From positions 5,692,227-5,756,226 of the forward strand of contig NC_037595.1 in assembly GCF_003073045.1 (NCBI RefSeq): a DNA stretch of 64,000 nucleotides, in the 5' to 3' direction. Positions within the stretch are counted from its first letter, which is position 1, and each line of letters starts with the position of its first letter. Below, piece by piece: positions 10,514-49,700 of the stretch. The notes under the pieces were generated by a model. That model was not told where the DNA came from. It saw nothing but the letters and a program-made list of their open reading frames with translations, and ran no database searches. The position numbers were made by a program, and so were the translations under genes. This DNA comes from Pomacea canaliculata (lineage: Eukaryota > Mollusca > Gastropoda > Architaenioglossa > Ampullariidae).

Positions 10514-13500
10514 TCAACAACACGTTGCCTTTCTCTTTTTTTTTTTTCGGCGCCCATGACCTCGACCTACGACTTTTGCGGTGCGAGAACTGCTCTGGCC
10601 GTGGTGTCTCTCCAACCCGCAGTGACAGTCCCTTCCTCGGCACCGGAGAGGCGACCTGGAACGACTCCGAGCAGCGCAGACTGAGCGACCGGAAGGGTAC
10701 TTCTTAGCACAGCAGCGACACTTCTTCCCTTTACAAGAAAACTCACTCCCGTGTACTAATCTCGCGTGTCGACCTTGCCCCTCGTTGGACCTCGAACCTT
10801 TAGAGGACGTTGTAGCCTTTTCTCTTTCACGCCTGCAGCAACTGCAGTCCCGATGACGGCGAGGACTGCGGTAGCGGTGGTGCTGGTCGTTGTGGTGCTC
10901 TCTCTCAGAATGCCTTGGCGCTCTCGGGGCAGCTGCTTCTCGACCTGCACGAATTGGAAACCTGCTCGTCGTGATCGCAGCCATGTCGCCTGCAACCACA
11001 CGCACTCGACCGTGACCTCCGGCAGTCACCTGCATCAAAGCACCCACCACCGCCAGCACCACAACCATGACGCCTTTCCTGAGGTCTGCGATGATGCGTC
11101 AGGCGTCGGTGTTGGTCCTGGAAGTCGCTTGCAGAGGACGAAACACACTGGCGATATTTCGGCTTCTGCTTGGACTGCGCTTTGTCTCCTACCGTCCTGT
11201 CTGGAACGTTGTTGATGGGAATGCTGCTAGTCCTGCCGCTCTGACGACCATGACCACGCGAGTTGTCATTCCGTGGAACAGGCTCCAGCAAGAAAGTCTT
11301 CTCGTTGCAGGTGCGTGCGACATTTATTTCCTGCGCTTGTGAAGGCTGAAGGCTGGTGTCAAGCCTGAAGTTGCGGGTGGCTTTAGCGTCATGCTTCTTG
11401 GAAGTGACAGTATGATTTGCGTCTGGGCACGACAGTTCCACGCCCAGCTCGTCCAGGTAGCCCAGACTTTCGGCGCCCGCGCCGAGACTCAAGCAATCAA
11501 TGGACTCCCACCCTCGCCGGAAGCCAGGCACACGAGGGAAGGGGAGCGAAGCGGTCACTGTAGACATCTTGCCCCTCTCCGCCCATATCCTTTCTCTCCC
11601 TACTTCGTCTTCGCTGACAGACGAATCACTGTGAAGACACTCGCCATCCTCCATGTCTTTTCCTTTGAAAGTCAACGCGTCCTTTGTCAGGTTGTCTGTC
11701 TGGTCAGCTCCATCATCATCTTTCTGAGCATCCTTCAAACGAACTTGTTCTTCCGATAAATCGCAGGCACCTCGCTCCTCCTCTTCCTTCTCATCAGATG
11801 CCAGCCGACCGCCACAATCCTCATCAGTTTTTTCATTCATGTACTTCTCGTTCGTCTGCTCGGAAAAAAGTTGTCTTGAGGCGCCATACGACCCCTCTTC
11901 TCCTTCGCCACTAGATGGAGGCTTGTTGATGTCAGAAGCCACACCGCAGAAATAATCAGGCGTCCTCTGACTGATTGGTTTGTCGTCGTCTTCATTGGTA
12001 GCAGCCTGCGCAGATCTACCTTTTGGCTGCTTGAATTCATACCATGTTGTCCCCTTTGTCTCGGAACCAGCCAACCTCGATCCCTCCTCTTTTTCAACAT
12101 TGTTATCCTCCATACAGTCTCCCACATCCTTACCATGGCCACTGTCTCTGTTATCTGCATCCTCCCTCTCGGTCTCTAGTGGGACAAACTCGGCGTCCAA
12201 CACTCTTCCTAGCCGCCGTCTTCTAGAAGAAAATCAGTGGTGTCAGCAGCACGGCGATTTTCATTGTTCTTCTCGTCCGCGTTTTCTTCCTCCCAGTAAC
12301 CGAGGTATCGTACGCAACTCTGGCGTTCTGCCAGCAGTTCTTTCATGTCCTCTCCATGGTCCGTGTTAGACGCTCTCTGATGATCATCAGTCCTGGCTAT
12401 CTTGCTGTTTCCATCAAGCTCCTTGCTTTTTCTGTCAGAATCGCAATCATCGGATTCGGTTGTTCGGTCTCGGAGCAACATGCGCTCTCATTCTCGCTGA
12501 GAGCGGCCCTGATTTTGGACACGTACACTCGCGTCCTGGCGCAACTACTGTCTGTGGAATCATCATACGTGGTAGTATCTTTCTCATGATCAGCGACAGG
12601 CCCGTCATTTGAGGCTTCACTGTCAACGACGATGAAGGAATCGTCAAACTCCTCACTCTTCTCTGCTTCCCCTTCCTCTTCCTGGTCTTTTTACCCTCAT
12701 TATTTGAGTCTTCGGAGCACGTGGCCGCATGGTTCCGACTGTTTCTGATGAGACTGATTTCAACATGTTGTACACAACTACTGCCAGCTTCAGCAGAGCC
12801 ACATATTTCGCTGGAGCTCGGGTTGAGTCTTTCCTGGATGTGTTTTGGAAGCAGGTGCAGTTTAGCCTGGGACTCGATAAAGCCTCGCATGACATCTGAT
12901 TTTGTATCATCATACAAATCATCATACTTCTCTGTCTCGCTACCAGCTCCTAGAGTTTGTCTGTCTCGTGGGCACGAATTTAGACGGGCTTTTTTGATCG
13001 TCACACCTTTGAGAGATTCACGAGAAAGTCTTTTGTTCCGATGACTGTAACGGCCTTCTGTTCCTCCCTTTTCATCTCTTCCTGACGTTTTCCCTTTGCC
13101 AGGCACATTCATCTGCTCCTCTTTCGTAGACACCTGAAGCATATTAGGAAGACTATTGCGCAAATCCGTTACAATTTTAAGTTTCTTGTCTTTATCATCC
13201 GTATCTTCTATAAGTTGAGAACCTGAAGAGTTGGCGACTCTGCTTCTGATGCTCTCTCCCACACAATCAGTGACTCGTTCTCTTTTGTTACTCAAGGCCA
13301 AGCGTTCTGTATTCTGCTGCTTCTTGTGCAGTAAGTTCTCTCTTAGCTCTGCAAACGGGGCATCCTCAGGCCAAGAAAAATTACACACAGAAGAGTGAGA
13401 ATGCAGGGTTGGAAGATAACTGCAACTACGATGGTCTTGCATGCCATCTACATTGACCAGTTCACCTTTTTCAGGACTGAATCCCTTGAAACTGGAAAAA

Positions 13501-16500
13501 CTGTTCTTGTCTGGAGGCGATGAAGTGTTTGTCGGGGATGTGTGAAAACTTTCAATCTCTCCGTCCTTCAGCTCACAAAATCGAGCTCTAGCAGGTTTTG
13601 TAAGTACTACTGCAGTCTCCTGGAAATGACACTTTAACTCCCATTTCTTTACATTACGTATCTGATGAATGTCTTTTTGATCACTGAAGCTTAGGGATGC
13701 TTCTTTAACATCAAAAGAACACTTGCTCTCTACAACCTTCGAAGCAACACTAGGTGCAGAAGCAGACCGTTTTCTGCCTCTCGTACTGCCGCATCTTACG
13801 CCTGAAAGTGGATCCTGCAATTTGGAGTTGCCCTCTTTAATACTCTGTTTTTCACACTGACCTTTGTTGGCTGTTGAACCAGGCTTTCCAGGCTGAGTGA
13901 TGTCAGGTTTTTCACAGCTTGGCTCATTTGCTTAATTCTATCACCCAAAATGTTTTGCTCTTTATCCCATCTATCTCCGCCGTCTCTGAGCCCCGACTTT
14001 TCCACACAGAGGCATTCACTCTTACAGGCTGGCTCCTTAGGTTGGTTACGATCACGTTGTAACTTTGAGACATGCATGTTCGCCTTGCTACCTCGGGACC
14101 CCGACTTTCTGAACTGTTTGGAAGCAGCGTGGAAATCATCCACATCCTCAGTTCTGTTTTGCTGCTGCATGTCCATATCAGGGACATCTGCGATCAATTT
14201 GACAAATCGTTCTTCTGAGGCAATGCCTTCTTCAGATGATTGCACCAAGCTGGTTTCCTTTGAAAAACTTGGAGAAAACGGTGATATAGAAAGAGAAGTC
14301 TCTGAAAAAGTACTAGGAACCAAAGATGTTTGGACAGTTGAATGCTCAAACAAGAAGGTGTCAAGCCTCACCGCTGGAGAACAGTCTGTGGTATTTTCAT
14401 AGACTCCTAGCTCACTGGTTACACTTTTTGGTTTGTGGCTGTTGATTACAAGCTGTGCAGAAGAAGTAGAAGAACCATTCTTGCATATGCCTACTTGTGA
14501 AACGTCAGGTTTAGGTTCTTGGCTAAAATGTTTGGAATGTTTTGCGAAATTAAGAAAGCAGGTAAAGTCTCTAGCAGCTTCGTCGTCTGAGAAACTGCTT
14601 TCATCTAAAATCTTGACATTCGACATTTTTCTGGCAGGCTTAGTACATGTAGATGTGACACTGTTTTCAACTATGCCAAGAAAAGCTTCAAAAAACCGGC
14701 TGCTAATCGGCTGATTTAGCTTAGAAACATCTAACAAACTTTTATCTGGCGACCAGACGATGCTGCCAGCAGTTTTATGAACTTCTGACAGATTTTGCAA
14801 GTTAGAATCACCCGCTGCTGAGCCATCAGTACACAAAAACTTATATCCAGTAGATGATCCCAAAGAATATTCTGCTGGACTGACCTCCATTCTGTTAGCG
14901 CAACTGAAGGACACGGTGGTCTTGTCAGCAACACGTGTTTTCTTGCTCGGAATTTGATGTGGAGTACTCTTTCTGTTTTTGGAACAGATAACTTTCTTTG
15001 TTGCATCCATTTTGCTACAAACCTCTTTCTCACCTTGCAAAGTGTTTGTGCCCACAACAAATGGAATATCATAGTCACTTAAAGATGATTCATCAGAAGT
15101 GTCTGTTGATACACTCAATTCTAAATCTCTGCTCACAATAACAGTGTCCAACAGGCAGTGCCTGTGATCTGATGAGGCAGCATTCTGGGAATTAGTTTTG
15201 TTAAACACTTTCACAGTATCTGGTTCTAGGGAAGCCTCTGTCCCCTGGATCCTGATGTGATTCAGATGGTTATCATCTGAAGCCACAGAGAAATGCTTCT
15301 GAATTAAAGAGGATGGTGTTTCATCCTCATTCTCTACTTGGACTCTCTTCTGTCCATTTACCTGGAAGCCATCTGTTTGTACTTGCTCATTACTTGTGCC
15401 AGAAGCCTGGATTACACAGGGCTCTGGTAAAGCACCTTGTTTCTCTAAAATCCTGCCACTTGGTACTAAGGCAGTTACAATCGTTTCTGATGTACAGTTA
15501 CTTTTATTTTCAAAGTTGTTACTATCGACCAATTTTATCGGGCTGTGTTTAAAATTTATTACTGCCACTTGCATCTTTGACCACTTTGGGGGACTGGGCT
15601 TTTCCTGTTTTCAAAAAAAGTTTTTTTTTTTTTAAAAAACCTTTTTTCCACTGTTTGCTTTTCAACGTCTTTGCCCCTTTTGTGGGAATTGGCATCAGTA
15701 CTTCCGACATTTTGGCTCCTCACTTTCTTTTCTCTTTTCAGGCTTCTTTCCTTCCCTACCTTTCTGCAAAAACATCTTTTTATTCTTTTGTTTGCTTTGT
15801 GATCTGCAATCAAAATTTTCTTTGTTGTCCATCTTGTCTTTTGAGGAATCAGAGTGGCTGCTTAAAGAGCTCTTAAATTTATTTTCTATTAGGCTATCTC
15901 TCTTTTCATCTTTTTCTGCATGTTCATAACTACTGATTTGAATTTTAGCAGACTCTTCTTTGTCTTCACAAAAGTATTTCGCATTTTTTTGCACACTCTT
16001 TCTTGAAAATTTTTTCTTCTGGTCTCTTATCATATGTGAACTGGCTGCCTTTTCATGCATTTCAATAACTTGAAGGTTTCTTTGTTTGACTGTGTTCTTA
16101 TGAACTTCACCTGGCTGGCTACTGCTTGTCTTAGACAAGTTAGCATTTTGTCATTAATCTTGGCATACAAAGTCCCTTTTCCTTTGCAGATTTATCAAGA
16201 TTTAGTTGTAATGCCACATCCGGCCAAATCTTGAGGCTTCACTCACATCTTTATTTATAATCTCAACTTTTTGCACTACCTTCCTGGTCTTTATCAGAGA
16301 ACTGTTATGAATTTCTCCTCTTCTTCCTGTGGTATCCCAAACCTATTATTTTTTCCAGCGTCCATTCTCTGTAGTAATCAGATCTGTTTCCATCTGACTA
16401 CCAGAATAAGTAGAGCACGATCCTGATTTTGTGCGTATGACAGATGGGGCGAGTTTACTTGCAGTGGCATTCTTAGGGATTTTACTTTCTGCTTTGTAAA

Positions 16501-34700: not shown

Positions 34701-37700
34701 TTTTTTCTGATACTCAGAGCTGAGACAAAATTCCAAATAGTTTATCAGTGCAGTAGATGACATTAAGGTAGTTTGATAATTACATATTTAAGGTAGTTTT
34801 CTTCTATTGTCTTATTTCCAAAAGTCTTCAAAAGTAGTAAAGTTTATTTTAAAACTCAATGATGATAAGAGTCAAAATGATTTGATGCTGCTGGCCATCA
34901 CAAAACATCTGACTTCTGCTCTATGTACAAAAAAAAGTTATCACAATAATACTTGAGGAAAAGGATGATTTTGTGCTTTGGAGTACATTTGAAAAAAAAA
35001 TGAGCAGGATGAAGCAAGCAGTCATATCTCTTAACTAAGCTGGTGAGAAAAGATATCCATGAAGCTTGAATGCCATAAACAAAAAGCCAGATAGCACAAA
35101 ACACATTGCTCGAGAAACATAGTATTTACAGTACATTTGATTTTCAAGTCAGAGAACAAATGAAAACAAAAATCATCCATTTAGCACTATTCAGCTTTGA
35201 TTTCCTGGCTGTCTTTGATGACTGTAAACAGGGAAGCTAACTCTTAGAAATGTACAAATGGCTATTTTTCTATCATGTGTCCCAGAGTTCAGGTACTTGG
35301 AGTATTCTCATAGTGTGGTGTTTGATCTTCACCACCACAGGTAGATCCTGGGTTCAGATTTCACCTTGGGTTCATGCACTACTCTCTCGATGTGATTGGT
35401 TAGGAGTTTCTTGGGGTTCTCTGAATTTCCCTCCCTTTACCACACCTTCCTCCCCTGAGTGCTAAATCACCAGTAGGTGAACACTTACCAACCAAGTACC
35501 AAGCAGCAGGTACTCAGGTACACTGATTCAACACCGAAATCTGAAGCTGAGTACCTGTACTTTCACCTTATCGAATCTTGCCTGCTAAGTACCCCTTCGT
35601 CTTGGTAAATAAACACTGTATGAGAGGAAACCCTCTTTTTTCGTAGGGGTGGCAAGGAGACAGGAGCAAGAAAAGGTAAGACTGCAGAAATTTACTTTAT
35701 GTTGCAAAGAAAACACTATGATTTATGTTTAAGTATTTGTTTACTTGTAACTAATACACAGGAGTAATCTAGTCATGCTCATCTACTATGCAAAGCAAAA
35801 TGAAGATGGCAGCTACATCTAACAGCAGCCTGTAAGCCACTAATGACATATGTTAAAAAGGAAATATGAAAGAGTTTCTAATTTATCTTGTTGTTTGAAA
35901 GAAAAGTAATTCCACCGAGAAGAGATTTTTCACTAAAAGATGATAAGGATGATGTAGTGGGGAGGAAAACAGAGTACCCAGAGAAAACTTTCCAACAGCC
36001 ACCCCTGTAAACAGGCATCACATACACAGTGTCCCAAGATGAGATCTCAACACCAGACCCATTAGGTATCACTGCAGCGATGACAAGTTAATATTTTAAC
36101 ACGACTGGTTGCCCCCATGTTAACCTTCCCTAAGCAGGTAAGATGATAAAGTTCACAAGGATCTGGGTGTGTGGTGTGCAAAGACTAAATGTAACAACTA
36201 TTTAAAAAAAGAAATTCTTACAAGTCAATCTTTATATAGAAATTTTACAAGGCCAGCTAGCATTTGATTACTAATCAGAAATGTTTCTTACAAACATCAG
36301 TCCCAAATAACACAAGCTCCAGCATTAGAATTTCACAAGTATACTAAAAGGGAAAAACTAAATGCCAGCAGGGCAAAAATATGTTTGTGTTTTGGGGTTT
36401 TAAAAAAAAAATTAATAAAGCTGTAAGCAAAAACTTTTACTTACAAGGTGGAGTGAAAATTTTAATCAAAATTTAGATTTACTCCCCTTTGGTATCATCA
36501 GAGACAAACCATGGGAAACCATGTGAAATTAGCTGTAAACGAGCATTTTAACAAACCATATTGATAGTTTTGAACGAGCAACAGAAGTTTCACTTTCATG
36601 CAGTAAACTACTGCGCTACACAGATAACATATTAAAAGCAGGTTCTTTTATTATTGGGTGGGTGGCGGGGAGAAAATATTTTCACCCCTTTAAACTCCAA
36701 AGCACATTTAACACAAAATAAACTGGAACATGCACAACTTTACCTGTCCTAGATATTTGCCCAGGGCAAAAACATACAAAACATAAGGAAAATTAGCACA
36801 TGACATTTAAGGTTTGAAAACTACAATAATCTTAAAGTTAATGCTAAGCAAATGAAATAAAAATAACATTTTTTTACTTTATTTTTTGTGGCTTTTATAT
36901 TAATTTTTAATCTCAAGTTATCATAAAAAATTTTGCATTTTACTGTATTGTGAATGATGAATAAGAACTTAATGCTCTAGATACCTGGGGATGGCTCGAC
37001 TGTTTGGCATTCCCTCGTGCATTGCCCTGTGCTCGGGCTCTCTGCTCACGTGAAGGCTTGTATTTTGGGTCCTCACTTGGTGTGTTGTAACCAAATAACT
37101 TGATAAAGCCTCCCATGAAGACCACAAGCCCCACACACATCAAAAGTACTGCCCACCAATATTCCTGCAATTATACAACATATAATCCTAGACCATAAGC
37201 TGTGTACTCTCTACGGAGATGATGATGATGGAATAACGGAGATGAAAAGCAGAGCTTCCATCTAGTTGTTATTCAATTTGCTGATGGTCATCAAAGAAAT
37301 CACGTCTGTGATATAGCATTCCAGTCTTTTGATAGTGTTGCTAATGTCAGAGTTGCAGCATGAGGCATACAGCAGTGCATCATCAGCAAATAATTAGCTA
37401 CAAATGGTATACTCTGTTACTGCTGTTACATCTATGTTACATCTGTACACTATGTTACAGCTTAGGGTTCTGAGGGCTGATCTATTAACATGAGAAGCAT
37501 ATAGATATTATAAATTACACATCACACTTTTCAACAACAAAATAATGATAATAATAAAGTTTCAACAAAAAACAATTATAATGATAATAATAAAGGCAAC
37601 CAAATGATTCAGGATAGACTGAATTAATTTTTTAGATGTTTTATGGGAAAATCTGTCTGAAATGTACACTTGAATGACTCTCTTGTCTGCTGATGGCATA

Positions 37701-40700
37701 TAGCACAAGGGAGGAGTTCTGCAAAAACTGACGCTGAATGGTTGAACTAAATGATTTTGTTTTGATTCTTGGAATGGAAAGGCGGCGACCATCTGCATAA
37801 GCATTGAGTTGCTTACTGGGGATATACTGAGTAAGTAGGTCTTAAATGTAGAAGCAGAGCATTTAACGAACCTGAAGTAGAGTACAACCCATTTAAAGTC
37901 TATGCAACCATGTACAGGAAGACAAAAGAGAATCACGAGAAAAGGTTTTGCATGGGAGATCCCTGTTATTTCTGTGAGCTATCAACCTGGTATACCATAA
38001 AGACCAGTAAGGCGATGGAGCAAGATTGGAGGCTGCAGACATCATACTGAAGGCTGCAGACATCTAGCATGGTGAGTGTATTGATACTTGCCCTTTATCC
38101 AGTGCACTCAAAATATCATTAAAGACTTTCAACATGTCTGTGCTACAGAACGGGCTTTAGACAGACTGGAGAATGAGGAAATAGATTGTTAGATTTAAAG
38201 CAGATTAACAATAGTAAGCCTTTATTATGAATGTGTGAAAATGAATTCATGCCAACACTGTTAATATTAATTAAAAAAGTATTGTAAATATGCTGCCCAA
38301 ACCAAGGGTGAAATTACTCACAACAATCCAATCTTTAACTCGTCCAAGTGTCACAGGGTTGAAAATCAAGTTTGTTAGTTGGTTGAAAGGACCCTGAGCA
38401 TCAACTCGCTGACATTTGTGGAATGCATCACAGTAACCACGGTAATTGTCACAAGCTGAACCAGGGGGCAGGGTCAGCTGGGGTTTCGATGGGTCACTTC
38501 CTCGGTTTTTAGCTGCCTCTTCCAGTAGCCTTTTGAAGTCTATATTTTCAGCTTTTGCTAGTGCATCTGAATTACTTGAGCTGACACACACACCACTCAC
38601 ATTATTTTCTGTAAAAAAAAAAAAAGAAGAAGAAAACAGTCTTCCTGCTGCTTGTCTAAGTATGATCAACAGTTATCTAAATGCAACATTCAAACATGTT
38701 TCTATCCATTAGTTTATAAAGAAGCACAAACATCACATGTGGAAATTAGTTCCCATAAATAAAACTCAACCCAACCCGCACACAAACACTTTCTACCTCT
38801 CCGAACTTATTTTTGCCTTTCTCTCTTTCACTCACAATCACTCACCCTCCACTCCACACATACCTTCTACCTCTTTTACTCCTCCAACTTTGTCTCTGCC
38901 CCTCCACCCTCTCTCTCACACACACACATCATGCTCATACACACTCAGATTGCATTATTTTACTCATCAATGCATTTTCTTTACTTTTGCTTAGATTGCT
39001 GACTTGCTTAAGTGTGACTTGCTTAATCTTAATGGTGGCATTTTGTGAATTTGGCATGCCTGATGACTTTTATATGTAGAGGAATGGCCGGCTATGTATA
39101 TCGTGTAGACTCTGTAGACCTACAGAAGAATTGCACAAGTGTGCCTGGAAGTGACTGGTCTGGGCTCTCAGTACTAATAGGCATGGGTCTACAGAAGCAT
39201 TGTGGAAGGTTTAACCCTGTGATAGGTTTGCAAGGGCACAGGTGAGATGAAATGGGATGAGACAGGCTGAAGATTTGACCAGCGACACAGAAAGAGACAG
39301 TGACTTTCTCACCGTTTATGATACAATGCCACAACCTGCTGTAGACAAATGTAGTTGTGGAATTTATTTAAGCCTGTTCAATAAAAGACAATACATTCCT
39401 GCCTCTCTGTCCTCTCTCTGAGTGTGTGGAAGGTTTACATACTCATATAACTCCAATTACCGGGCTATAGATATAAAGTATAATAAATGTGAAAGTTTGC
39501 TGCACCGACCAATCATATGTAACGTTAGCCTCTGCATATTAAACCATACTCACTACAAGCCACGTAACAGAAGTCTGCAGCATTTCCAGTCTCAGATGTC
39601 AGGAAACACTCCTCCCACGAAATTCTTTTACAAAGAGGTGCAATGCATTCCTGAAGAAATAATGAGATAGTCATAGAACCAGACATAAGAATCATATTCC
39701 AAAAAAAGATAATCTAACTAGGTGATGCTGTTATTGACAAAAGCATGAGGCAGCCCTTTCCTCTTGAAGTTAGGTATAGACTTAACCAGGCCAGAACTTC
39801 CCAGTTGAGATACAATTTTTTTGCTGACGTAATAACCTTCCTGATATTGTTCTGTCTCTTCCACCATGAAGTCATATTCCAAGTGCTGTGTCACTTGGCC
39901 AATGAACAAATTCTTATTCTGTTATTCTCACAAAGAAATGCAGTTTATCACTTGAGGACAATGAACCACAACTGAAAAACTTAGATCTGTGGTGTACTTA
40001 CGTACCAACAAATGGTTAAGGTGGTGATAAAAGAAAACCCCATAGTGAATGGGAAAGAGAACTCACCCCCTTGGAGCACACTTTTGTAAAAGTGTTGCAG
40101 AAATTACCATCTGGTTTGTGGCGAGGTGCTGGGCAAGTGAAATTAATGCCAGTGAATCAAGTTACGGAAACTGTAACTTTTTTTTTTTTATAAAATAACT
40201 GAAAAAAAGTAAGCCATGCACTCGGGTTGCTTCTACACGCTCAACTTGTTATTTTGCCACCATCCATCCAACAAAAACAAAAAGAATGACAACATGAAGA
40301 CAGTTACAAGATTCAGAGCTTGCAACAACTTATGGAAGAAATCTGTTCTGTCATCATGTGTGACAAGAGTTAGGGTTGACAATAGATACATCCACACAAG
40401 TATATTTACAACAATAACATGTGAAAGAGTTTTTAAAGTGTATATAGTATGTAATGTAAAGAAGATATTACAAAGCTATAACTTCCCAAAAAAGGATATT
40501 TGCATTGTGAGGCATATGAACAATTTGTTTCCGCCTGGCACTCAACAGTTTCATTAGGCTGAATCAGTTTGCAGCCTTCCTTACAACAGGGGCCAGAATC
40601 AGGACTGAAAAATATTTCAAAATTATAGAATATTCAAGCCAGTAAGAGAATCCTCATGTAATGATGATGTTTAAAAAAACCTATAACACAGATGATCCAA

Positions 40701-43700
40701 TATTCTTAAATAACTGTAGACACAAAAACACATGACCGTGCACATGCACACACATAAAAATAACCCAACTATTCCCATCCTTCAGTATTTCAATTCTACT
40801 GTGATACAATATTGCTTCATTACAGAGGAAAGCTACCAATTTATGGTTTACTTTAATGTGATCCATTCTAATTCAGTTCATGTGTCAGTCAGTAAGTCAT
40901 CATCTGTCAGTCATTTGTTTCTTGTCTGGTACCTGTTGTTGGTGGAGCACATAGACTGATACAGCAGCTGACATATCCTGTGTACTTATAACTGTTTCAC
41001 TAAGTATGTATCACTGGCAATCCCAATGTATTTTTGACAAATGGCTGTACAAGTTAAAAAGTACATCAAGAACACAGATGGTCTGAACTGTGTAACTGCA
41101 AATGTTATTAAGATACCAATGCAGTAAAACCTCCTTATTAAGATCTTCCACAGTGTGACCCTCTTAGCCACAAACCTAACATTTTTCAAGTTTGTATTTG
41201 CAAAAGTCAGAATTTTAAAATAGACTACATCTGTCCGACCATTGGCACTATATTACAATGTAATGCAGAAATAAAATAAATTACATCCATTTTGAAAGAG
41301 ACTGCTTGTCCATTGGGTCACTGGTCATTTTAACCCAAACCATATCAACCCAGTCAATATCAACATCGACCTAAGACCTCACCATGACTGTATTGTCTCA
41401 TGTAAGAGCATATTATCTCAACACTTGGGAATTCCTTAAGCCTGGGCCTGAGTCTTCCCTTTTCAGTGTTGGGATGATGTGGTCTTACATGGGACAATAT
41501 GATTATGGTGGGGTAGATTTGACTTAGGTGGGAGGTTGATATGGCTGGGGCAATATGGTTTTTAGTCAAAATGACCACCTCAAACTCTACCCCAAACCCA
41601 GTTCATTGTAATCTCTTTACCAGCACACATCAGTCGATTGTGCTTCATCAATGATGTTTATAACAATATGTATATGTATATTCTTGTGACTGACTGTCTG
41701 TACCCTATTGTGACTTTCTTGGTGCAGAATTCATGTTTGTTTGCTTTTTTATTAAACAGTGCATTGTAAGAGAGCTTTGTTGTCTACCACAATCCTAGTG
41801 TACGGATCGATTGCTCTTATCTAGAGAGTTAGTTCCCTCTAAATCCCCTACAGATTTCAATTATGTGCAACAATGGTTTAATAAGCAAGGGAGGGGAATT
41901 GGTGGTTTAATCTGAGCCAGCAACTAAGGCTACATCATGGCAAGGCAGCCAGCCCTGTAAACAGATGCCACATGCAGAGAAGGAACAGGGTGCCCAAGAT
42001 GAGATCTGAACCAAGGGCAGCCAACCTTCACTGTGTTGGTGACAGGTGCTAACTGTTGCGCCACTAAACAAGCATGACTGAGCAAAGGTGAAAACAAAAA
42101 AGTAAAGAATAAGAACTATACTTTCAACATTAACAAATTAACTTTAATTTGAAGACATAGGTATTTGAAGACATAGTTTGTGGAATGAAAGCAGAATTAT
42201 TGATTTCCAACTAAGACCCTTCTCGTGATGACCTGATTTCTTTTTTAAAAATAAACCATGGTGGTTCCAGCTGGTGTTAAAAACCTGATTATAAAGGTAC
42301 ATGTATTTTTATATTATTTTAACACCTAAAAATGTGACAAATTCACCCCACCTGCACTCCGCACCAGAATTCAGTTTACACATATTTCCATCATTTTGGC
42401 CTTCTTTTCGAGGTACACAGCAACTGGTAGCTGTGTTGCATTCATTTTCAAATCCACAGTCACACTGCTCTCCTGGCTCTGTGATTTTGTTCCCACAGAA
42501 TGCTTCATCAGAGGCTACAAACACAGATGCATGGTTGGCAATTGGCAAAACACCATTTTATGCTTGTCTTTATGAAGCTGAACAAGAAAGGTTTATCAGA
42601 TGCCAAAAAAGTCCAAGAACTAATGTGAAATATAAACTAAGATGACAAGATCAAACAGATCAGACAGATCAAACCGCAATGCTGGTCTCAATGCTTGAGT
42701 GTTGTGTTCTAAACACATGATAGCATATGATCACTGGCTCACTTTGCCATTAAGTAAAAACCAGATTTCCTCTTATGCACTTATTAAGCTTGCCCTTCTG
42801 CTGTAGGTGAAAAAGTCAGATTATCAAAATCTATTGTCACCTCAACTAGTCCAAACCAAAGTTGTTTTTTCATATACATATTACAGAAAGTAGTTTATAA
42901 AACAATATAACTTACTAATGAAGCATGAAGTGCGTATCCCTGAAACACCTGCTTAAGGATGCGAGTCATATTGTCCTTGCTGCATCGTGAGAAATCATCA
43001 TTGTGAGGCTGGTCTCCACCCGTTGCACTTGGAAACATGATGTAGTTTCCATCTGAGGCATCACTTCTCCTTGTGCCATAAGGTGCACACTCATCTGATC
43101 CAATGTCATGCTGCCATTTGCCAGAAAAAAAAATCTTAGGGAAGTCATATAATAAAACCTTTAATTGCTGACTCAGCAATAAACACTAATCCCTCCCCCC
43201 CACCCTCTCTTTTGCACTTTTTTCACTCTCACTCACAAGCACACACACACATATACAGACATTCCATATGATCTTTTATCAACTAACAACAAAACGTAAG
43301 TATTACTTACAGGAGATCCAAAGTTATGTCCTGCTTCATGGGCAAAAGTGAGCTGGGAAACACGGTTTGGAACTGTTTTACCAAAGTTAATGATTGTGAC
43401 AATGCCAGTGTTTAGACTTTTTTCTTTGCCGCCAGTAAATGTGCTGTGGCGACCACATACACCACTCTGTATACCTATGACCAAAAACAAAAAAATGAAC
43501 TAGAAATGTGAAATAAAATTCTGCAACAATCTACATTAAAAAATAAAATTATAAATTAGTTCAAAATAATTTCTTCAAAAATATTTCCAAAACATGAAAA
43601 AGAAGCTCATAAGGGGTTTGAACCTGTTAGGATTTACATTACTGTTGATCAGCATGTCAACTGGTCAGGTAAATACTCAAATTTTATCAAAGAATGAGTA

Positions 43701-46700
43701 AAGGGTGTTAGGAGTCTGGTTATATGAAAATATAAACACATCATTCTCTCTTTCCAAAAGAGATTGTTCAGGTACCAAGTTCATGAACCATAAGAAATAT
43801 AATTTTGCATCCAAATAATATATATCTCAACTGCATTTAAATAAAATTTCTATATGTTGCTGCTTAGTCTTACATATAATTATGCTTTTATAGCCTTAAA
43901 ATCAGGTACACCCTAATTTAGCATTCATGATATATTAAACTAGAAAAAAAAAGTAAAATTAACAGATAAGATTACTTTGTTCAGTGGCCACCCAGGCCAG
44001 GCCCAAAGTCCCACCACTGAAGTCTCGATATGTGAACGTGAATGCAAGACAGAAGTTGTCATGGTTGTCAAGAGATGTCAGGTCTAGAAAGTTGCTGACA
44101 TCCAGATTGTTAGCGCAATATTCTGTGCGGTATGTTCCACAAGTTGACGTGGAGGATTTGGTTGGGTTCATTATCTGTAAATGAGACATAACAGCCAATT
44201 CAAAGTCCATAAAAAAACTGAACAATGATTTTCAGGAAACTAAAACAGAAAAGTATTTCAATAAAATTACTTTCAAGATTCTAATTGATAATGTACAATA
44301 AAAGTCATTTGAAGTCTGTTTTAGGCTACAGGATTCAAAACTAACTGAATGATGGGTAAGAGTAAGGTGAGATAGAGGACAGAACAGCTGAATCAATTTG
44401 TACTTTATCCATCTCATGCCACCCTAGTGAAAACACAAAATTAGGATGTTCCTTCACTGTTACAAGTCAGCTATGTTTAACTGGTTATATTCAAGGGAAC
44501 TCCAAAATATTCTACAGGTTATTTTTAAACGTTCTGTATATTTATATAACAGAAACTAGTAACTAGACTATAAACTCAGCTTGATAACATACTGTTGTAC
44601 GATGTATCTGGAAACGTATTCCTGTGTAGTTCATAGATTTGTCATATGTTTCAAAAAATGTTGTAGAGTAGATATCACTGATAGCTTTCACATGGGCAGA
44701 AAAGAATCCTATAATGTCCTCTTCTGCCAGGTCATCAGTCTGTAAAGAAGATTAAGCCAATACAACAGAAATAAAATGAAACAATATAAAGTAAAAATAT
44801 GTGTATTGATATTTTGTGACTATATATCATATGATTACAACATATACAATTACTATACAGCTGTGCCTACCCTGTGATTTGCTATGTTTGTTTATTCTCC
44901 TGTGATACATTGTGCACATACTATCATACGCATATAAACATACTTATTTTCTGTAAGCATATGCAAACTCCATGGTGCAAGCAGATGTGCATGCCATATT
45001 AAACTAGCAAAAAGATTTAAAAATTTAAAAGGACCTTTAAAACACATCACGGCTAAACAGTAGTTTGATATTCAACAATCCATGCCTTTTAATTTTAAGA
45101 TTAAAACCATTGGTTATTCCATACAAGCAGCAACCACTCGAACATAAATAATACTGTTGACAAGGAATCTAAAATCAAGGCTGAGCTATGATGATGTCAT
45201 TTCCTGCCAATACTGATAAAAGGAACTCACAACTGTCTGACCACGCCTCTTGTTTTTAAAGAAGTCGAAAAGTAAAGGATCTGCAATCATATGCAATGAG
45301 CAGGTTTTCTTGGTGTCATCAGCCCGTTTCACACGAATATTTGCTGCTGCATTATTGTCAGCTGAATACATGTGATACGGTTGATTTAGCTGCTCATCTT
45401 CAGTCATCAGCATATCCTAGAAATGCAAAAGTATTTGAGTTTTGCACAATTTTTTTTCAAGAAGAACTCACTGTACAAAATTATGTATTATATGGCTAAA
45501 GTGACACTTACTAAAATCGTAAGACACCCAAATTATATTGGAGGCACTCTCCGCACCAATAAACGTATCTTTACACATTTCTAATTAAAAAAAGAAGAAA
45601 ACTAGAAGAAACTAGGTTTTACTGAAACTAGCTTTGACTTAATGCATTTGTTTGCAAAACCTGCTTGCAAAATAACCAAAGAGTTATAATATTTTTCATG
45701 ATATTGTTTAATCTGAAGAAAACATTTTGAGAATATAAACTTACACATTACATTAATTTAATTCTTATGCCTGGATATAATCTTTTGAACAGACCTTTTG
45801 GAGAATGGCTCGCTTGCTTATATGGGCAGGTTCTTCCAACTGTGAACTTGCTGCCATCCATTCTTGAAGATGGTCTAAAGCACAAGATCCCACTTCAGCT
45901 TCCCGTCTTGCTCTGAAATGGACAATAAACATCAACTTATCAGAAACATTCCTTCACATTCTACATCTGTAGAAGGCTGGCAGGCTGGTGTTTGTTGTTA
46001 GAGTTGGCACTCGAAACACATTGGTGCAGGTCTGATTGGGCATCATGAAAAAGGGTGCTCAGCAGTAATTGGCTGGGATTAAAGCTCAAAATTGCTCCGG
46101 CCATACAAGAGTATCGCAGAAAGTTTAACCTTCGAGAGGTATACAAGGGAAGAACTGAAACAGGATGAGGGAGAACAGATGTGGGGCAGATAAGAGAAGA
46201 GACAGCCTCTGACAACGTGAAGCAGCCGTGGCCATTGTACAAGCTCGTCGATTAAAGGAGTAGTACGCCTGCAGGCTGTTCCAGTGTGTTGAAAGTTTGT
46301 TGTTGTCTTACAACCCCACCACTTGGTTTCACATCTACTTTGTTTTAAGGTCAATAGCAAGGAACAGCAACTAAACGTTTTCCACTTAGAGACTCAAAGG
46401 AGACCAGAAAACTTCATCTAAACAAAATTTTTCTTCACTATGAACTCAAAATTTCATATAAACTAAAGCCTCAAGTTTCTATTTTCAACCAGGATTGCTG
46501 GCAGACAACTAGTACACTAGACACCTATGATGCCGATGACAGTTGTTTTATGTACAAATCTTCAATTCTACACAAGGAACTACTGACAAGAAAGCAAAAA
46601 AAAAAGAAAAAAAGGTGGAGGGCTAGTAGAATAGAACTTTGCAAACTCATAATTACATGATTAAAAACTACTCACTTCTAACCACTTTTGTTTCTTTGCC

Positions 46701-49700
46701 TGAATAGAAAGATAGTTGTGCCATTCTTTGACAACCTTTACAGTTCACACTGTTAACACTTAATGTTAAGAGAGAAAGAATACAAAATTAAAGGACACAA
46801 TGGAACTAAGTGAATACAACTTTAAAATGTAATCCTTCACACCTGTACGGGTCTTTGTCCAGATGAGTGTCTGGGTAGATGACAGTATGAAAGATGGGTG
46901 AGTTGAGGTATTTGGAAGCTGGCTCAATGTGAAAAAGGCTGCCATCAACTTTTATATGTCCTTCAATGCTGCCATTGTGAACTGACAAGTGAACTGAGCT
47001 GTGTGGGTCTCCTGTGTAAGAAGAACATAACACATAAGTCCCAGATTTTACTTGCGCATGAAACAAACCAAACACACATTTATAATACAAAGTAATAAAT
47101 AATACAAAGAAAATAATTTGTTTAAAGAGTAAAAAGTTTAAAAAGTACCCTAAACGCACTTCACCAGAGTGTGCGTGCCTGTGTGCATGCATAAGCACAT
47201 TGGAAAGGAGGTGATTAAAGACACAGGAAGAGAAGACTACAAGGAAAAAAGAGAATGTTTTCAAATTCTCTGCATATTGAACAATATAACCTCAGTAATA
47301 TATCACATTAAAAGAATACAACATAAAACATCTACTTCCAAGAATCTTATTTCGGATGGCTCTTTGAGATTTGGCAAGGGTGTGGTGGTGTTGCCATTGC
47401 CACAGAATATGCTCATCGCAAATGGTTTTAAAACTGTCACAGTCATCTCTATAATGTCAGAATATCATTCTGATGCTGTACTGAATGACAATCACCTATT
47501 ATTAATTGGTTAGGTTAAAACCAAAAAAAAACCCACACAATAATAAGCAATTGTTTTAAATTAAAAAAACTCTTCTGTTTAAAATTATTAACAAACTACT
47601 ATTAACTTAACATAACTAACTTTTACAAACTTATGTACGACAGGGGCTGAAGAAGGCAAACATGTGGGGAAGAGACTGAAAGATCCATTTAACACCAAGA
47701 GAAGTTAAGACTAATGTAGAAGCCCTATGATGAATTTACATTTTTTTCTGTTTACCCAGACTGTCAGAATGTTACAACCTTAAAGGTCTAATGAGGAGCA
47801 ACATTTTTTCTCATGATTGGGTAAAGCTTGTATGCTATTTCCCCAAATCTAGGTGAACAATCCCCATCCATTCTTGAGATACACACCTACAGACAATCAG
47901 GCACAGAAAACGTTCAGAATCATGTTTGTACGGTCATGCCTAATTCACATTATGGTCTCACCCTTTCCAATGGCTGAGGCTTTCCTAATATAAACCTATT
48001 CATGTACAATCCCTATATCTGTGTTGTTGATCTCTGTCTGTGGGGATGTTTTCAGGCATACATTTTGAGAATGGAAAGTGTATTCACCCTGATTTGAGCT
48101 TTACCCAATCAATGTAAACAAATTATGCACCCTGATAGTCCTTTGACTTTTTTCCCAGACATTTAAAACAGATCTATAAAGTGGCCAAAATTAAAAAATA
48201 ATAGGCACTTGAATAGGTTATATACTGTGACAAACTGATGAATCATATCATCTGTGCCTACAAAAAAAAAAAAAAAATTGATTTTGAGCACAGTCTCCCT
48301 CTGTGACCTACAACCATAAATATACATCTATAGATATATAAATGTACACACAGGCTATTTTTTAAAAATATTTTACTTTCAGACTCTTGACTGACAGTTT
48401 GCTGACAAACCAGATTAGCCCTTGGTCACATGCTGCAGAAAACAGAAATGCAAAGTTTGCACTTTTGTAAAAATGTGAAAAGTTTCTACCAACCTTGAAC
48501 TGTACCCTGGTAAATAAAAGATGTATCTGCAGTATGGATGCCTACACCATCCCTATATACTTTATGGTCATTGCTGAATATTCCCTCTGCTGGCTGTAAC
48601 CTCAGCTGAAAATCTCTACGAAAAGGAAACAAAAACAAAAAAAAGGAAGTAAATAGTATTTATCAGCTAAAACTGATTGTGGGCAAAACTAAAGAAAAAC
48701 ACTTCATCTCTTTGTGTTGAGTTTTCCAGGAGTTATGTTTACATTATTTTACTGGATCACAATCCCTTATTCACAGTCATCTTAAAATTTTGCCAGCAAA
48801 AATAAATTTTCTGTCCTTAACATTTGAAGTTGCAGATCTTGAAGACACGTTAAAAATTCACAGATTCTAAGGAGGGTGCTGCTTCAGCTGGACCAAAAGG
48901 TCCAACTCTGACCCACCCTTTTATATTTTTGATGATTTACAACTTAAAAGTCAATAACTCACCTCTCATATGCATTAAATCTAATATGCAAATCACTGTC
49001 CAAGGATCTGCGAACACGATGGTGGTTATTATGCACAGCAACTCGGTCATAGGTCAAAGGTCGAAAATCAAGAATGTAGTCATTAAGCTTGGCACTTTCT
49101 GCAAAAATACATATGCAAAGTAAATAGCTTGGAAAACAATTAGAACAATTTTTAGGGCACAAAAGCATTATGCATGGTATCATGATGTTAGTTCTGTCAA
49201 CTAATTATTTGGGACAGTTTTCAAAATAATTATATAATACATAATTATATTATCCATTATATTATAGTCTCAAGACTGCAATTAACAGATTCAAATCACA
49301 TATGCAAGCTTTGAGATGATGCAGTAGCAAAATTACACATGTAAAATGTGGTCAACTCTTTGCCCAGTATCAATGAAAATTATAATATTTTAATGTTACT
49401 GGTGGCATTATCGTGTGTTGGGTATGCAGGTGGCACATGGAAATCTTCCACAATTAGGAAATGCACTAAATAACCTCAGTAATGTCTATAGGCAGACTTG
49501 TGTAAATGTAAACAAGAGAGTTGCTTAAGAATGTCTGAACGTGTTACACAAGGTAGACTGCCATAGCCGGTCAGAAAAAAGTTGGGCAAACTTCAGCAGT
49601 GTATGGAGCCATCAGCTGAAGTCACATCACCATAGAGCAGGTGCAAATGAAGGGTTATGGAAATTGGCACCCACTGTCCTTTAAGCTCACAAGATGAAAG

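What the first reader, a model, noticed from the sequence alone, without database searches (positions are those of the whole stretch)
40152..40499. U12-dependent AT-AC intron inside ADAM10
The donor (ATATCCTTTTT), the branch site (TTCCGTAAC, ~10 nt from the end) and the AC acceptor all fit the minor spliceosome. Only this splice restores the frame and the CNGxxxxCP cysteines of the ADAM10 Cys-rich region. A minor-class intron would make this Notch sheddase depend on U11/U12 function. Whether it is ancestral or lineage-specific is an open question.
Basis: partly seen in the sequence, partly recalled or inferred. Interest (0 to 1): 0.8.

Follow-up and report, generated by a model that had tools for sequence, protein, structure and literature searches.

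The report
Minor-spliceosome intron in an ADAM10-like gene
An animal ADAM10-like protease gene appears to contain a rare type of intron removed by the cell's minor splicing machinery, and a second, closely related gene in the same genome carries the same kind of intron at the same place, so it is probably older than their duplication.

Summary
On the minus strand, 40499-40152 begins ATATCCTTTTT and ends TTCCGTAAC + 9 nt, last two AC. Removing it joins ...SQC-N-GINFTCP... in phase 2, restoring the Cys-rich motif of solved ADAM10 chains. Of 70 in-frame, stop-free GT-AG, GC-AG or AT-AC joins tried, this one alone keeps NGINFTCP. U11, U12, U4atac and U6atac genes are present.

New here: a second ADAM10-like gene, on contig C2, has an AT-AC intron at the same codon and phase, ATATCCTTTAC...ATCCTTGAC + 9 nt. 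It is nearer to human ADAM10 than the window gene (49.9% against 41.0% identity). The intron is therefore most simply older than this duplication.

Against a wider claim: three more divergent relatives (C8, two on C12) have no intron there, and the four searchable pieces of them match human ADAM10 better than ADAM17, so not every ADAM10-related gene here has it. No other animal genome and no RNA were available, so deeper age and splicing itself are untested. A well-supported new member of a known kind.

The parts
40152..40499 (-). U12-type AT-AC intron, 348 nt, phase 2, between exons numbered 12 and 13 here (my numbering)
40489..40499 (-). 5' splice site ATATCCTTTTT; CCTTTTT is complementary to AAAAAGG at the predicted 5' end of this genome's U11
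40161..40169 (-). branch-site-like TTCCGTAAC (one mismatch, G at position 5, to TTCCTTAAC)
   Evidence: both U12 copies carry GAGTAAGGAAAA
40500..40604 (-). upstream exon (S)PDSGPCCKEGCKLIQPNETVECQAETNCSYASQC(N)
40067..40151 (-). downstream exon (N)GINFTCPAPRHKPDGNFCNTFTKVCSKG, followed by GTGAGT
36985..49098 (-). ADAM10-like gene body as far as matched, prodomain to transmembrane segment; first exon, a small prodomain exon and the 3' end not resolved

Best explanation
Window 40499-40152 (minus strand) is a U12-dependent A-type (AT-AC) minor intron in the Cys-rich region of an ADAM10-like gene. Most likely U11 recognises ATATCCTTTTT and U12 recognises TTCCGTAAC, U6atac then replaces U11, and the minor spliceosome, probably helped by CENATAC, removes it. 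It was most simply present before this gene and the C2 gene duplicated. If it is retained, the frame runs 22 residues to a stop, upstream of the transmembrane exon, so a membrane-anchored product of either gene should need minor splicing. Shown: the sequence elements, the single join that restores the motif, the shared codon and phase, the snRNA genes. Inferred: splicing in vivo, CENATAC use, any effect on protein level.
For: Donor, branch site, spacing. The join aligns to ADAM10 chains at E 2.4e-10 and the assembled protein to human ADAM10 8esv at 1.7e-89. 1 of 70 in-frame joins keeps NGINFTCP. C2 gene: ATATCCTTTACTG...TTATCCTTGACTTGCCAAAC, 371 nt, phase 2, joins LCGGKSAMCP. 8 junctions tried in both genes, 7 located in both: all 7 share place and phase, 6 GT-AG in both, this one AT-AC in both. 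U12 (2 copies), U11, U6atac, U4atac above Rfam cut-off. CCDC84/CENATAC family in 4 stretches; U11-48K zinc finger in 2 (this short model also matched 1 of 14 control genomes, Sulfolobus). CENATAC promotes splicing of AT-AN minor introns in human cells (PMC8280824, passages).
Against: No RNA. Branch site has G where consensus has T, a mismatch to this genome's own U12. The C2 branch site also departs once (A for the first T). An in-frame AC acceptor 15 nt further on (40137) would drop GINFT. In the C2 gene GT-AG joins keep MCPKAQQKP, one with only 1 extra residue (5598/5231), though its donor fits 4 of 9 consensus places and its acceptor has 7 of 20 pyrimidines, against 6-8 and 11-17 for 7 GT-AG introns of the window gene.
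Confidence: 0.95

Rival explanations
1. A U2-type AT-AC intron: AT-AC ends but spliced by the major spliceosome.
For: Such introns exist (PMC6717393 and PMC8280824, passages).
Against: The donor is ATATCCTT, the U12 form (U2-type AT-AC donors resemble ATAAGT; recalled); the stretch before the branch site is a run of A, not of pyrimidines; a near-consensus U12 branch site sits 9 nt from the end. The C2 gene repeats donor and spacing.
Confidence: 0.02
2. An ordinary GT-AG or GC-AG intron with other ends.
For: 12 GT-AG and 18 GC-AG joins are in frame without stops in the window gene.
Against: All 30 were printed and none keeps NGINFTCP; their acceptors are three AGs (40129, 40111, 40081) inside conserved coding sequence. 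GT donors fit 3-5 of 9 consensus places, against 6-8 for 7 GT-AG introns of the same gene; the best GC donor fits 7 but cuts off the conserved Cys.
Confidence: 0.02
3. The window gene is a decaying copy and the site is a relic.
For: It is the more diverged of the two (41.0% against 49.9% identity to human) and its branch site has a G mismatch.
Against: The matched exons are open, HEAGHNFGSPHD is intact across a junction, and all 8 window junctions tried join in frame.
Confidence: 0.04
4. The two AT-AC introns arose independently or were homogenised by gene conversion, so that they say nothing about age.
For: Only one genome was seen; age was not tested elsewhere.
Against: Same codon and phase, six further shared junctions, different branch-site departures and different lengths, 348 and 371 nt.
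Confidence: 0.05

Closest known systems
U12-type (minor) introns, AT-AC subclass
   Same: Donor, branch site, spacing, AT-AC ends, phase other than 0
   Different: G at position 5 of the branch site; the host family was not tied to minor introns in the paper searches made
ADAM10 (Kuzbanian) protease family
   Same: Best solved-structure match is human ADAM10, ahead of ADAM17; zinc site, disintegrin, Cys-rich and transmembrane segments matched
   Different: The more diverged of two close copies in this genome; function untested

Membership tests
U12-type AT-AC intron | 5' splice site RTATCCTTY (consensus recalled) | tested here: met
   ATATCCTTTTT
U12-type AT-AC intron | Branch site near TTCCTTRAC close to the acceptor (consensus recalled) | tested here: met
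   TTCCGTAAC, 1 mismatch, 9 nt gap
U12-type AT-AC intron | No pyrimidine tract as in major introns | tested here: met
   read directly (A run, then TTACAGTTTCCGTAACTTGATTCAC); the last 20 positions before AC hold 13 pyrimidines, largely the branch site itself
U12-type AT-AC intron | Score with published U12 matrices | not tested
   consensus matching only; no matrices were loaded
U12-type AT-AC intron | Genome encodes the minor spliceosome | tested here: met
U12-type AT-AC intron | Spliced in a U12-dependent way | not testable with these tools
   no RNA
ADAM10 | Nearer to ADAM10 than to ADAM17 | tested here: met
   8esv 304.2 bits against 8snl 145.3 bits
ADAM10 | HExxHxxGxxHD zinc site | tested here: met
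   HEAGHNFGSPHD across the 9/10 junction
ADAM10 | One-to-one orthology with vertebrate ADAM10 | tested here: inconclusive
   two close copies; C2 nearer to human; five-sequence tree
ADAM10 | Sheds Notch | not testable with these tools
   no functional data

The most novel reading that the evidence does not exclude
An old A-type minor intron kept in both close ADAM10 copies is a shared control point: its retention stops translation before the transmembrane segment in both, so U11/U12 and CENATAC activity sets the level of membrane-anchored ADAM10, or makes a soluble truncated form, and so tunes Notch-type shedding, while the divergent intron-free relatives escape this control.
Probability: 0.08. 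Interest if true: 0.6.

Novelty: new member of a known kind. Interest (0 to 1): 0.38.

Why it matters
It puts a protease family that sheds Notch among likely targets of the minor spliceosome in this animal, in both close copies, and gives a natural contrast with divergent relatives that lack the intron. It can be tested directly with RNA-seq and with other animal genomes.

Tried and rejected
The own genome has no relatives on hand. So age beyond the duplication stays open.

Label mended on review: I first called the C8 and C12 loci ADAM17-like. Cys-rich pieces of all three and catalytic pieces of two match human ADAM10 better than ADAM17, so they are divergent ADAM10-related genes of unsettled place; no gene was shown to be ADAM17 here. 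That withdraws the reading 'every ADAM10-like gene carries the intron', and I lowered the novel-case probability from 0.10 to 0.08. It also weakens the tree, where two of them served as outgroups.

Alternatives mended on review: (narrow range) gave 0 GT-AG/GC-AG joins, (wide) 12 and 18 but printed 6 of each, one search printed all 30. In the C2 gene 20 GT-AG and 18 GC-AG joins exist and 44 of all 69 keep AMCPKAQQKP, so there the restored motif does not single out the AT-AC join; donor, branch site and the window gene do.

Papers (listings only, none of these opened): ADAM10 + minor intron 1, ADAM10 + U12 3, ADAM10 + minor spliceosome 1; no listed title is about a minor intron in ADAM10. One search listed 25 of 152 papers, ADAM10 count 0 in those 25; one search listed 15 of 289, kuzbanian count 0 in those 15. 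Human ADAM10 exon layout: nothing usable in the listings. Notch + minor spliceosome + sheddase: 0. Opened, passages only: PMC10639083, PMC7367187, PMC6717393, PMC8280824; the first three have 0 occurrences of 'adam' in the main text.

Junctions: of 8 tried in both genes, 15/16 was not found in C2 by the script; 3/4, 4/6, 7/8, 10/11 and 14/15 were not tested. The plus-strand candidate at 11584 lies opposite long minus-strand frames and is taken as chance, not followed up.

Full report
What is there. On the minus strand coding sequence runs to ...TCACAATGCAA, is interrupted by ATATCCTTTTTTGGG...GTTTCCGTAACTTGATTCAC, and resumes at TGGCATTAATTTCACTTGCCC. Removing 40499-40152 joins ETNCSYASQCNGINFTCPAPRHKPDGNFCN in phase 2. 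The joined stretch matches ADAM10 chains in 6 distinct sequences, best E 2.4e-10, with CNGINFTCPA over CNGITALCPA.

The gene. Exons match from the prodomain (49087) to the transmembrane segment (37048) with a recalled human guide. The assembled protein is nearest to human ADAM10 (304.2 bits), then ADAM17 (145.3 bits). HEAGHNFGSPHD is complete across a junction. The first exon, a small prodomain exon and the 3' end were not resolved.

Chance. R+TATCCTTTTT: 1 perfect and 4 one-mismatch sites in about 128,000 positions. RTATCCTTY: 3 sites, the chance level. Branch-like sites with at most one mismatch: 32. What chance does not readily give is donor and branch site at the two places fixed by protein homology and reading frame. 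Of 70 in-frame stop-free joins 1 keeps NGINFTCP. GT donors among the 12 GT-AG joins fit 3-5 of 9 U2 consensus places; 7 GT-AG introns of the same gene fit 6-8.

The second copy. A genome-wide protein search gave 42 matches, among them a second ADAM10-like gene on C2, matched from prodomain to transmembrane segment, 405.1 bits to human ADAM10 and 146.5 to ADAM17. At the same codon it reads CTTTGTGG|ATATCCTTTACTG...TTATCCTTGACTTGCCAAAC|AGGGAAAAG, 371 nt, phase 2, C2:21650610-21650240. Both introns have AT-AC ends and 9 nt after the branch-site C; their single branch-site departures differ (G at position 5; A at position 1, with the accepted G at position 7). Seven junctions located in both genes share place and phase, six GT-AG and one AT-AC. 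In C2 a GT-AG join with one extra residue is also in frame (5598/5231), with a weak donor (4 of 9) and few pyrimidines (7 of 20). One intron inherited through duplication is the simplest reading.

Relatives without it. Three more divergent loci, L029 and L030 (C12) and L031 (C8), read straight through the site. Their pieces match human ADAM10 better than ADAM17: L029 Cys-rich 75.8 against 30.9 bits and catalytic 53.7 against 40.7, L031 catalytic 147.8 against 91.1; for the L030 and L031 Cys-rich pieces ADAM10 is best and no ADAM17 chain is listed. They may have lost the intron or never had it.

How old. Identities: window-C2 54.0%, C2-human 49.9%, window-human 41.0%; in a five-sequence tree window and C2 group apart from the other three (97), the C8-C12 pair has 49. 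This favours a duplication after the split from the vertebrate line, but the tree has few, long and partly incomplete branches and uncertain outgroups. Nothing tests a greater age of the intron.

The machinery. Two U12 genes 2.7 kb apart (117.1 and 66.3 bits), one U11, one U6atac, one U4atac, all over the Rfam cut-off. Both U12 copies hold GAGTAAGGAAAA, U11 starts AAAAAGGGC, U6atac holds AAGGAGAGAAGG. CCDC84/CENATAC matches in 4 stretches on C7, the U11-48K zinc finger in 2 on C4 (1 of 14 controls also rings).

What follows. Retention would read KYPFLGSYSFVISSLHYILYTL and stop in the window gene, and GYPLLYKLLYSMLKII and stop in the C2 gene, upstream of the transmembrane exon. A regulatory role is inference.

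Known or new. AT-AC introns are about 24% (mouse) and 22% (human) of minor introns (PMC6717393, passages). Minor introns lean away from phase 0, and molluscs and the brachiopod Lingula are relatively rich in them (PMC10639083, passages). The kind is known. No paper tying ADAM10 to a minor intron showed in the listings, but supplementary gene lists were out of reach.

Noticed in passing
L002 and L003 (G000:C6:27472237-27475147): Two U12 snRNA genes 2.7 kb apart; the second scores lower (66.3 against 117.1 bits) but keeps GAGTAAGGAAAA.
   Followed up: partly
L031 (C8) and L029, L030 (C12): Divergent ADAM10-related genes with few introns in the matched parts (one open frame of 533 aa in L031) and none at the minor-intron site; possible intron loss.
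   Followed up: partly
G000:C1:12084805-12557793: Nine weak hits to the zinc-site region spread over about 0.5 Mb, suggesting a cluster of metalloprotease genes.
   Followed up: no
window 10517-15610, minus strand: Several long open frames, parts rich in Arg and Ser; the plus-strand U12-like donor at 11584 lies opposite them.
   Followed up: no
L027 5581-5238 and 5598-5231: In the C2 gene GT-AG pairs nested near the AT-AC ends are in frame with 9 and 1 extra residues; possible weak U2 alternatives.
   Followed up: partly
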